This document shows, one piece after another, positions 24,801 through 27,043 of a stretch of DNA of 64,000 nt. The notes below the pieces were generated by a model. The model saw only the letters and a program-made list of their open reading frames with translations, was not told where the DNA came from and ran no database searches. The translations under genes and the position numbers were made by a program. Each line of letters opens with the position of its first letter. The first letter of the stretch is position 1. The stretch spans positions 20,504,127 through 20,568,126 of the forward strand of contig NC_058495.1 in the NCBI RefSeq assembly GCF_020382885.2. The letters are read 5' to 3'. This DNA is from Scatophagus argus. Its lineage: Eukaryota > Chordata > Actinopteri > Scatophagidae.

Positions 24801-27043
24801 ACTTTGGGAGCTTTTTAGATTTTTATTTTTATTTTTTACCCATTTTTGTGGGATTTAAGTTTTTCATATTTTTTTATTATTTATTATATTTTTTTAAGAA
24901 ATAGCACGAGATGAGCGGTTTAATTTCTTCCCCACATTCACTGCTGACACGTAACCGACAAAGACGATAATTAAAACCTCGAGCGTGTGAAAACCGTACC
25001 TTTTAAAAACGTCTTCTCCCCGTGTATGTACAGTGGATTTCATATCTTCATGTGTGTCTTGATCCAACCCCCCTCTTTGTGTGTGTGTGTGTTTTTTTTT
25101 CTTTGTTTGTTTTCAATCAAACAGAACGTAGAAGTGACGCGGATATCAGAGGAGGCTTTGCAAACAGTGCCAGCTCACCAATGAGGCAGTGCTCCTCACC
25201 TTTCTTACATGCACACTGTACCCTTCAAATGCTCAATACACCTGCCAAGCTCAGCATCTTCTTGTAGACTTTCTTCACCACCTTCCTTCGATTAAATTAC
25301 TCTTCACTCTCCTTATCTTCTGTTTTTCCTCCAATTATATTTTAATATGTGATGATGATGGAAATTGACTGGAATCCAGTTTCTAATTTTGATTATTAAT
25401 CTTCTGACACGGATTTCGTGCCGTGCATGTTCTCCCATTTTTGGAGAATAAATGAAAAGATGATGAAGGTTTTTTTTTTCCCTTCTTCTTCTTCTTCTTT
25501 TTGAGCTGATGCTGCAGTCTGAACTGTGAAGCAGTGAATCTCCAGCACCTTTTCATGTTGAAGCCGTGATTACGTGCAGTTGATTTTCTCATTGATCTTA
25601 CCTGTTGAACTGAGTTTTAACTTTTTACCAGTGTCTCATCACTTTATATTTCTGTTGGTAAAATCCAGGACACTGAGCTTGGTTTTTTCAGCATTGCACA
25701 ACTTAGGTTTTGTTTTTTTGTTTTTTTTAATATTTTGCACATAAAAATCAACTCTGTGTTTATCACCTCATTAAATGTCTTTGATTGCAGTTTGTCTCCA
25801 GTTTTAGGTCGTTTAACACTGTCTAATGAAGATCCTGAAACAGTCGTACTTTGTTTTGTTTTTTTTTGTTGTTGTTGTTGTTCAGTTATGTGAAGGTTAT
25901 TCTGGTATATTCACTGATCAGAAGCTATTTCTGTTTAATGTTTCAAAATAAACGACACCCAACAATTTCATGTATCCTTACCACACTCTTCTTTGTGCTT
26001 CATTTTAGAAAGTTTGACATGACAGCTGTGTTCCTCCTTTAATATCTAGAAGTTAGGATCTGAGGTTATAAGCTTTACTTTGAATGCACATCTCAAGATA
26101 AAGCAGGATATTTCTTTCTCGTGCGATTTGGAGATGAAAAGATGCAGACTGCTTCCTTCCTACTCTTACTATCTACATATCAGATGCTCGGCGCAGTCCC
26201 TTCCTGCTTTCTCTGCTGTGCAAACTGAAGGCTGAGTCTTTTCCCCCCTTTCATTCATATGCAAAGACTCCACTGGGGTGCCATTCATCAGCCTGAACAA
26301 ACCACTCACTGTGCCGCGCACATTTCTTTACATTCAGCTTTAAAGTGATAAGAAAGTGTAGACTTCTTATTCGCAGCCAGTAGTGCTTTCCACAAAGACA
26401 GCTTTCCTTGTAAATGAAATAAAGACATGAAAAACCAAGAGGTAAACAGCGTGCTGCTACGATTTCTCGTCAACTTGTGTTGATGACAGCATCTTATCAG
26501 TCATGAGATGGGTCTGATAAGCTGATCATCAAAAGGAACCCGAAGTGACCTTCACAGTTTCAAAGAGGTCAGATCATCTGTGGGCGCATCGTTAAAAAGA
26601 AAACTAACTTTTCCTGATACGTCTTGAAAACCATGACATGGCATATGCAGACTGCGGTCATCAAAACAAAAACATTGACTGTAAGGAGCAGCTATTGCGA
26701 GTGCAAACAGAATTTTCCTGCTGCGGTGCCCTCAGTGGTTACACACTTATGATTTACAGTAAATCAATAGTGTGTGTTTTTCATAATAATTCTCCTCGCT
26801 TCACCCTCCCTGGGCTTTTAGTTGCCAACATAAGATTTTAAGTGGTCTGTGAAAGATTTCATGGTCTGCCACTTCTTTCCCAAAGTGTTCAGGAAACTAA
26901 ATCATAAATCATACAGACTTCCTGCAAATACGTGCAATATTCTTTGAGAAGGCATCTGACACTGATGCGTTCCCTCTTTGCAGAATGTGAACATCCATCG
27001 TCCACCTGAAGACGCCCTGAGGACCGTCCCTCCTCACCTCTGA
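18632..27043 (+). CDS. pfkfb4: 6-phosphofructo-2-kinase / fructose-2,6-bisphosphatase 4
   Basis: Cytosolic bifunctional enzyme: the N-terminal kinase makes fructose-2,6-bisphosphate, the main activator of phosphofructokinase-1, and the C-terminal phosphatase removes it. Thirteen common coding exons: 18632-18836, 20090-20206, 20377-20473, 20563-20629, 20723-20797, 20892-20948, 21032-21153, 21261-21468, 22157-22303, 22397-22501, 23237-23366, 24124-24186 and 24298-24362. They end with one of two alternative last exons, 25125-25184 or 26984-27043. Either way the frame is open for 505 residues. Walker A GLPARGKT is at 82-89, phosphatase CRHGESELN at 291-299 (phospho-acceptor His 293), and the second His in VICHQAVMR at 427. 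[14 protein letters not shown] near the N-terminus and the PAHQ end identify isoform 4. Start: the ATG at 18632 is the first; the ATG at 18725 has better Kozak context and gives 474 residues, closer to the 469 of human. Confidence 0.95.
19742..19965 (-). repeat. Dispersed teleost repeat ending in an ATT/CTT microsatellite, copy 1
   Basis: Read on the - strand, ggatgggtcaaatgcagaag, then acgaattcaatgtgtgtatg, then atatatactgtcaagaaagc, then a ttcttcttattatta tail. The same sequence is at 37300-37440 on the + strand. It lies in pfkfb4 intron 1. Confidence 0.7.
20090..20206 (+). CDS. pfkfb4: pfkfb4 exon 2 (Walker A)
   Basis: It encodes [20 protein letters not shown] and [19 protein letters not shown], including the ATP-binding P-loop. 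Confidence 0.96.
20377..20473 (+). CDS. pfkfb4: pfkfb4 exon 3
   Basis: It encodes [20 protein letters not shown] and [12 protein letters not shown], fructose-6-phosphate-binding region of the kinase. Donor AA|gtaaga. Confidence 0.95.
20563..20629 (+). CDS. pfkfb4: pfkfb4 exon 4
   Basis: It encodes (K)[20 protein letters not shown] and VA. The following intron is only 93 bases (20630-20722). Confidence 0.94.
20723..20797 (+). CDS. pfkfb4: pfkfb4 exon 5 (Walker B region)
   Basis: It encodes [20 protein letters not shown] and [15 protein letters not shown] is the highly conserved kinase motif. Confidence 0.95.
20892..20948 (+). CDS. pfkfb4: pfkfb4 exon 6
   Basis: It encodes [19 protein letters not shown]; phase 0 at both ends. 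Confidence 0.95.
21032..21153 (+). CDS. pfkfb4: pfkfb4 exon 7
   Basis: It encodes [20 protein letters not shown] through YETLDEVLD, the last kinase-domain segment. Confidence 0.95.
21261..21468 (+). CDS. pfkfb4: pfkfb4 exon 8 (bisphosphatase RHG motif)
   Basis: It encodes [20 protein letters not shown] through [14 protein letters not shown] and LTPRGKE. The His of RHG is the phospho-acceptor of the phosphatase, a histidine-phosphatase-fold domain. Confidence 0.96.
22157..22303 (+). CDS. pfkfb4: pfkfb4 exon 9
   Basis: It encodes [20 protein letters not shown] through [14 protein letters not shown]; the conserved acidic residue of the phosphatase active site is in this block. Confidence 0.95.
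22397..22501 (+). CDS. pfkfb4: pfkfb4 exon 10
   Basis: It encodes [20 protein letters not shown] and [15 protein letters not shown]. Confidence 0.95.
23237..23366 (+). CDS. pfkfb4: pfkfb4 exon 11 (second catalytic His)
   Basis: It encodes [20 protein letters not shown] and [20 protein letters not shown]. Confidence 0.96.
23530..23960 (-). mobile_element. Tc1-like transposon remnant (3' part)
   Basis: On the - strand, translation around 23690-23880 gives [17 protein letters not shown] and, after a frame change, [20 protein letters not shown]. This is the characteristic end of a Tc1 transposase catalytic domain (DLNP.EH.WDE). The terminal motif ggtgtcccaatacttttgtc lies at the left end (about 23535-23560). 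The 5' half is gone and the frame is broken. It sits inside pfkfb4 intron 11. Confidence 0.8.
24124..24186 (+). CDS. pfkfb4: pfkfb4 exon 12
   Basis: It encodes [20 protein letters not shown] and Y; 63 bases. Confidence 0.95.
24298..24362 (+). CDS. pfkfb4: pfkfb4 exon 13
   Basis: It encodes [20 protein letters not shown] and PE, ending in phase 0. Both candidate terminal exons join here in frame. Confidence 0.95.
24388..24419. repeat. CA microsatellite
   Basis: (CA)16 array, 25 bases after pfkfb4 exon 13. Confidence 0.95.
25125..25184 (+). CDS. pfkfb4: pfkfb4 terminal exon A
   Basis: After tttcaatcaaacag it encodes [19 protein letters not shown] and TGA: 60 bases including the stop. The PAHQ end matches mammalian PFKFB4 as remembered. 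An AATAAA at 25447-25452 could end a transcript that uses this exon. Confidence 0.92.
   Translation, partial: NVEVTRISEEALQTVPAHQ
25185..26983 (+). other. Interval between pfkfb4 terminal exons A and B
   Basis: It serves as 3' UTR for exon A transcripts and as intron for exon B transcripts. It is AT-rich with T-runs; AATAAA occurs at 25447-25452 and again near 25945 and 26418. No other exon was recognised. Confidence 0.55.
26984..27043 (+). CDS. pfkfb4: pfkfb4 terminal exon B (homologous alternative last exon)
   Basis: After the acceptor tccctctttgcag it encodes [19 protein letters not shown] and TGA: also exactly 60 bases and phase 0. It matches terminal exon A at 10 of 19 residues and retains the RPPE block of the mammalian tail. 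It appears to be a diverged tandem copy, used either by splicing past exon A or not at all. Confidence 0.75.
   Translation, partial: NVNIHRPPEDALRTVPPHL

What the first reader, a model, noticed from the sequence alone, without database searches (positions are those of the whole stretch)
25125..27043. pfkfb4 has two homologous, equal-length alternative terminal exons
Exon A (25125-25184) encodes [23 protein letters not shown] and exon B (26984-27043) encodes [23 protein letters not shown]. Both are 60 bases, both start in phase 0 after a good acceptor, and both follow exon 13 in frame. They share 10 of 19 residues. From memory of the human tail, A keeps the PAHQ end and B keeps the RPPE block, so each preserves a different half of the ancestral tail. 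Each has its own downstream AATAAA. This looks like an old tandem exon duplication giving two C-terminal isoforms by alternative splicing coupled to polyadenylation. The C-terminal tail tunes the bisphosphatase in this enzyme family, so the isoforms may differ in kinase/phosphatase balance.
Basis: partly seen in the sequence, partly recalled or inferred. Interest (0 to 1): 0.85.

Follow-up and report, generated by a model that had tools for sequence, protein, structure and literature searches.

The report
Two alternative tail exons in pfkfb4
A gene, apparently from a fish, for an enzyme that sets the rate of sugar burning carries two old, related versions of its last coding exon, so it can probably make the same enzyme with either of two tail ends.

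Summary
The window carries a complete pfkfb4 gene, presumably of a fish: 13 shared exons, 18725-24362, in frame. Two 60-base exons follow, A 25125-25184 and B 26984-27043. Each has an AG acceptor, phase 0, 19 codons and a stop. Against a profile made only from paralogue tails, B and A rank 1st and 2nd of 177 AG+19-codon+stop windows (61.0, 55.0; next 2.67). Third codon positions of A and B agree at 5 of 20, second positions at 16 of 20. Both are as tail-like as tails of genes that have only one. So the duplication is old and both copies were held by selection for most of its age. In 20 kb at each of six other pfkfb loci no second tail exon was found. The best tail tree joins B to the second pfkfb4 gene's tail, but A-B sisterhood is not rejected, so the date is open. 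No RNA or other fish was available: alternative use, coupling to polyadenylation and effect on the enzyme are inferred. The kind, C-terminal swaps of tandem duplicated exons, is known (PMC9741552).

The parts
18725..24362 (+). pfkfb4 shared part: 13 exons (18725-18836, 20090-20206, 20377-20473, 20563-20629, 20723-20797, 20892-20948, 21032-21153, 21261-21468, 22157-22303, 22397-22501, 23237-23366, 24124-24186, 24298-24362), kinase and bisphosphatase domains
   Evidence: one open frame across all 13 exons (start codon chosen by reading); best PDB match 1bif/3bif, 851 bits, with tail A attached
24363..24368 (+). donor of exon 13 (GTGGGT), shared by both tails
   Evidence: sequence; 3rd of 20 donors of the two pfkfb4 genes in a leave-one-out matrix
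25125..25184 (+). terminal exon [23 protein letters not shown]
   Evidence: AG acceptor, phase 0, stop; 2nd of 177 in paralogue-profile scan; acceptor rank 40 of 53 rows
25447..25452 (+). AATAAA, candidate poly(A) signal for A (others at 25947 and 26418)
   Evidence: sequence
26984..27043 (+). terminal exon [23 protein letters not shown]
   Evidence: AG acceptor, phase 0, stop; 1st of 177 in paralogue-profile scan; acceptor rank 19 of 53 rows
27674..27679 (+). AATAAA, candidate poly(A) signal for B (another at 27779)
   Evidence: sequence
24388..24419 (+). CA repeat starting 26 bases into the intron after exon 13; can pair with the UG repeat before exon A
   Evidence: role inferred
25078..25091 (+). 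UG repeat upstream of the exon A acceptor
   Evidence: role inferred

Best explanation
This is an old tandem duplication of the last coding exon of a pfkfb4 gene, presumably of a fish. Exon 13 is joined to exon A or to exon B, and each exon brings its own stop codon, 3' untranslated region and poly(A) site, so the gene makes two enzymes that differ only in the last 19 residues. Shown: the gene, both exons, their homology, and long constraint on both. Inferred: A is the proximal exon with the weaker acceptor, so its use is probably the regulated step (splice to A and cleave at 25447 or later, or run on to B with its stronger acceptor). Also inferred: the tail swap tunes the neighbouring bisphosphatase domain, protein stability or a partner contact.
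For: Frame and junctions. B and A 1st and 2nd of 177 candidates, far above the third. A and B are each about as similar to the other tails as these are to one another: mean BLOSUM62 57.0 and 58.0 against 56.4, 55.4 and 63.8. Codon positions 12, 16 and 5 of 20 identical (positions 1+2 against 3, Fisher p 0.002): protein-level constraint with third positions at chance level. Neutral decay of 0.2 substitutions per site left a tail as good as observed in 0.6% (A) or 0.3% (B) of 4000 simulations each. AATAAA signals after each. Both acceptors lie within the range of the pfkfb acceptors collected. The kind is known: 77 of 236 human tandem-duplicated-exon events swap C-termini (PMC9741552, passages).
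Against: No transcript evidence could be examined. The second pfkfb4 gene (C3:14.26 Mb) and both pfkfb1-like genes show one tail exon only in the 20 kb scanned, so two tails are not required by the enzyme. Only 19 codons, so recent loss of constraint on one copy (under about 0.1 substitutions per site) is not excluded. No effect of this tail on activity was tested; the review passages seen leave the role of PFKFB4 C-terminal variants open (PMC4178209).
Confidence: 0.75

Rival explanations
1. One of the two exons is a relic: only one tail is spliced, and the other was released from selection recently enough to look intact.
For: Paralogues manage with one tail. A has the weaker acceptor (rank 40 of 53 rows). 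At 0.02-0.05 neutral substitutions per site, 12-49% of simulated copies still look as good as observed.
Against: Both frames, acceptors and stops are intact. Both score like tails of single-tail genes, B a little higher than A against paralogues. More than about 0.1-0.2 neutral substitutions per site is unlikely, while third positions of A and B are at chance level, so any relic stage would be a small last part of a long history.
Confidence: 0.2
2. Exon A is spliced in front of B without 3'-end formation, so B is only part of a long 3' untranslated region (or A works as an exon that lowers mRNA level).
For: A precedes B and carries an in-frame stop.
Against: This does not explain why B kept a tail-coding frame in phase with exon 13. 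AATAAA signals follow A at 25447, 25947 and 26418. Donors after A were not scanned.
Confidence: 0.05
3. Chance likeness or an assembly artefact.
For: None found.
Against: Scores far above the 175 other candidates. A and B differ at 27 of 60 bases, and the best match between their flanks is weak (E 0.08), so B is not a copy repeated by the assembly.
Confidence: 0.01

Closest known systems
Tandem duplicated exon substitution events, C-terminal class (PMC9741552)
   Same: Homologous neighbouring exons, one tail swapped for another, mostly ancient.
   Different: PFKFB does not occur in that paper's main text (term count 0); its supplements were not available. Splicing is not shown here.
PFKFB3 and PFKFB2 C-terminal splice variants (PMC4178209, PMC8263283, passages)
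   Same: Same enzyme family; alternative 3' exons change the C-terminus.
   Different: There the tails vary in length and exon combination; here two equal-length homologous exons. In the PDB alignments the matches to the PFKFB3 and PFKFB2 chains end within the first three residues of the tail.
Mammalian PFKFB4 (PDB 1bif/3bif, identified by recall)
   Same: Same protein, a 19-residue tail in the same place.
   Different: The passages seen mention rat PFKFB4 variants with other C-terminal parts (PMC4178209) but no homologous second tail exon.
Drosophila pip, clusters of homologous terminal exons (PMC9013439, passages)
   Same: Homologous terminal exons chosen in a mutually exclusive manner.
   Different: Eight clusters, another gene and animal group, discussed there among duplications in untranslated regions.

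Membership tests
pfkfb4 | Kinase plus bisphosphatase domains and PFKFB4-type 19-residue tail | tested here: met
   the tree groups it with the second copy (85) and with 1bif (99). With tail B, the last 62 residues score slightly higher to 1k6m (PFKFB1 by recall, 104.4 bits) than to the PFKFB4 chains (102.6)
C-terminal tandem duplicated exon substitution | Neighbouring homologous exons of the same phase and role | tested here: met
C-terminal tandem duplicated exon substitution | Both copies under protein-level constraint | tested here: met
   recent release of one copy not excluded
C-terminal tandem duplicated exon substitution | Each copy spliced to the same upstream exon, one per mRNA | not testable with these tools
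   No RNA reads
C-terminal tandem duplicated exon substitution | Conserved in related species | not testable with these tools
   The search tool says this genome has no relatives held; within this genome the second pfkfb4 shows one tail
Alternative last exons coupled to polyadenylation | Own stop and own poly(A) signal for each exon | tested here: met
   signals only, cleavage not shown

The most novel reading that the evidence does not exclude
The tail duplication is older than the split of the two pfkfb4 genes of this genome. One gene kept a B-type tail only; the window gene kept both and uses them as a tissue- or state-dependent switch of the kinase/bisphosphatase balance, steered by pairing or protein binding at the CA repeat next to the exon 13 donor and the UG repeat next to the exon A acceptor.
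Probability: 0.15. Interest if true: 0.65.

Novelty: new member of a known kind. Interest (0 to 1): 0.45.

Why it matters
PFKFB enzymes set the level of fructose 2,6-bisphosphate and so the rate of glycolysis. Two natural tails on one catalytic body, kept apart for a very long time, would give a clean natural experiment on what the C-terminal tail does, which a review leaves open for PFKFB4 variants (PMC4178209, passage). It would also add a metabolic enzyme to the list of C-terminal tandem-exon swaps.

Tried and rejected
A second tail exon at the other six pfkfb loci: a profile scan of 20 kb each found none with AG and stop. The best weak site in the second pfkfb4 (local 4474, score 19.2) looked like a decayed A exon in its first 12 residues, but a base-level test did not support it (best match of A in that intron: 169 of 200 shuffles as good). 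That test is weak: A against B itself scores only 7. So loss of an A-like exon there is neither shown nor excluded. Of the 28 region-by-tail tests the lowest was the g6 tail in the last intron of g1 (4 of 200 shuffles); with 28 tests I take it as chance and did not follow it.

Dating: 15 five-tail topologies; best ((B,g6),(g1,g3),A); A+B sister and A+g6 sister are both 1.65 log units worse and not rejected. Four-fold site identity of the three closest gene pairs is 57/113, 61/123 and 52/115 (0.50, 0.50, 0.45), but pairs between different pfkfb types already reach 0.36-0.47 with 0.25-0.30 expected at random. So the measure is near saturation and says only that the splits are old. That the two pfkfb4 genes stem from the teleost genome duplication is inference.

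Flank similarity between A and B: only weak matches (best E 0.08). Copies of the A-B spacer or the B region elsewhere in the genome: two short partial matches for the spacer, none for B. A second copy of exon 13 or of the other shared exons in 18001-30000: none at E below 0.01.

RNA pairing: donor-side stretch with the A acceptor -47.6 kcal/mol, with the B acceptor -19.3, A acceptor with the CA repeat after B -31.4. No shuffled control was run, and 18 CA/GT runs of 14 bases or more occur in the 64 kb, so this is only a lead.

Literature: nine searches, of which I saw listings and abstract openings, listed no paper on homologous PFKFB4 tail exons. The library lacks most subscription journals. 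Structure prediction was not run.

Full report
The gene. Exon pieces from the window assemble into one open frame over 13 exons, 18725-24362, with GT-AG junctions. With tail A attached, the best PDB matches are 1bif/3bif/2bif (847-851 bits), ahead of 1k6m (774), PFKFB3 chains (740 and less) and PFKFB2 chains (729 and less), and the alignment to 1bif runs through the tail. That 1bif is the rat testis enzyme PFKFB4 and 1k6m the liver enzyme PFKFB1 is recalled; the table names only the enzyme. In a protein tree the window gene groups with a second copy in the same genome (support 85) and with 1bif (99). The kinase-domain search shows seven pfkfb loci: this one; g6 at C3:14.26 Mb (second pfkfb4); g1 and g3 on C8 (pfkfb1-like); and g2, g5 and g4. 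The last three I take for pfkfb2-like (g2, g5) and pfkfb3-like (g4) from recall; they show no such tail in 20 kb each.

The two tails. Exon A (25125-25184) and exon B (26984-27043) are 60 bases each, begin in phase 0 after AG and end in a stop. A profile from the paralogue tails of g1, g3 and g6 alone gives B 61.0 and A 55.0; the next of 177 AG+19-codon+stop windows in the 64 kb scores 2.67. No second copy of exon 13 or of the other shared exons was found at E below 0.01 in 18001-30000, so the duplicated unit now visible is the tail exon alone.

Age and constraint. A and B agree at 12, 16 and 5 of 20 first, second and third codon positions, the stop included. Of 6 shared four-fold sites none agree. 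Third positions are at chance level while second positions are kept: an old duplication with protein-level selection. Measured against the other tails, A (57.0) and B (58.0) are as tail-like as g6 (56.4), g1 (55.4) and g3 (63.8). Starting from real tails, 0.1 neutral substitutions per site leave 6.8% (A) and 4.0% (B) as good as observed, 0.2 leave 0.6% and 0.3%, of 4000 trials each. A recent release of one copy is possible; a long one is unlikely.

Which is older? The g6 tail shares 41 of 60 bases with A and 40 with B, while A and B share 33, the joint lowest of the 10 tail pairs (with A and g1). The best of 15 trees puts B with g6 and A outside, but A+B and A+g6 are each only 1.65 log units worse. 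This leans towards an exon duplication before the two pfkfb4 genes split, without proving it. Four-fold identity of the two pfkfb4 genes is 52/115 (0.45), within the range between different pfkfb types (0.36-0.47), so their split is old but not datable this way. No intact second tail was found in g6, g1 or g3, and a suspected relic in g6 did not pass a base-level test of low power.

How it probably works. The donor of exon 13 ranks 3rd of 20 donors of the two pfkfb4 genes. The A acceptor ranks 40 and the B acceptor 19 of 53 rows, two sites being listed twice. Candidate poly(A) signals lie after each exon. This fits the layout of alternative last exons: a proximal weaker exon whose use is regulated and a distal stronger one as default. 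That reading is inference. A CA repeat follows the exon 13 donor and a UG repeat precedes the A acceptor; they can pair, which may favour or mask A, but no control was run.

What the swap may do. Reviews place regulatory regions at the ends of these enzymes and report C-terminal splice variants for PFKFB2, PFKFB3 and rat PFKFB4 (PMC4178209, PMC6131595, PMC7926708, PMC8263283; passages only). The paper on the C-terminal function of PFKFB3 was not held. A contains a serine in its middle (RISEE) where B has none, and B ends PPHL where A ends PAHQ; no consequence was tested. With tail B, the last 62 residues score slightly higher to 1k6m than to the PFKFB4 chains (104.4 against 102.6 bits).

Known or new. 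C-terminal swaps by tandem duplicated exons are a known and enriched class: 77 of 236 human events (PMC9741552, passages). PFKFB does not occur in that main text. Nine searches listed no report of homologous PFKFB4 tail exons, in a library that lacks most subscription journals. I file it as a new member of a known kind, with expression unproven.

Noticed in passing
G000 C3:20.52 Mb and C3:14.26 Mb; C8:1.59 and 3.29 Mb: Both pfkfb4 copies lie on one contig about 6.3 Mb apart, and both pfkfb1-like copies lie on another about 1.7 Mb apart, which would be unusual for pairs left by a whole-genome duplication.
   Followed up: partly
window 23600-23818 (-): A reverse-strand ORF in intron 11 (between 23366 and 24124) holds a stretch like the end of a Tc1/mariner-type transposase ([15 protein letters not shown]; likeness recalled, not searched; ORF).
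   Followed up: no
window 24388-24419, 25078-25091, 27195-27218: CA, UG and CA repeats beside the exon 13 donor, before the exon A acceptor and after exon B; arms can pair.
   Followed up: partly
window 32194-33079 (+): ORFs downstream of pfkfb4 that look like TADA3 (recalled likeness, not searched).
   Followed up: no
window 50984-51481 (-): ORF that looks like the C-terminal part of an RBM24/RBM38-type RNA-binding protein (recalled likeness, not searched).
   Followed up: no
G000 C3:14263973 (g6 local 4474): AG followed by SVNVSHTTEEAM in the last intron of the second pfkfb4: possible decayed A-type tail, not supported by the base-level test.
   Followed up: yes
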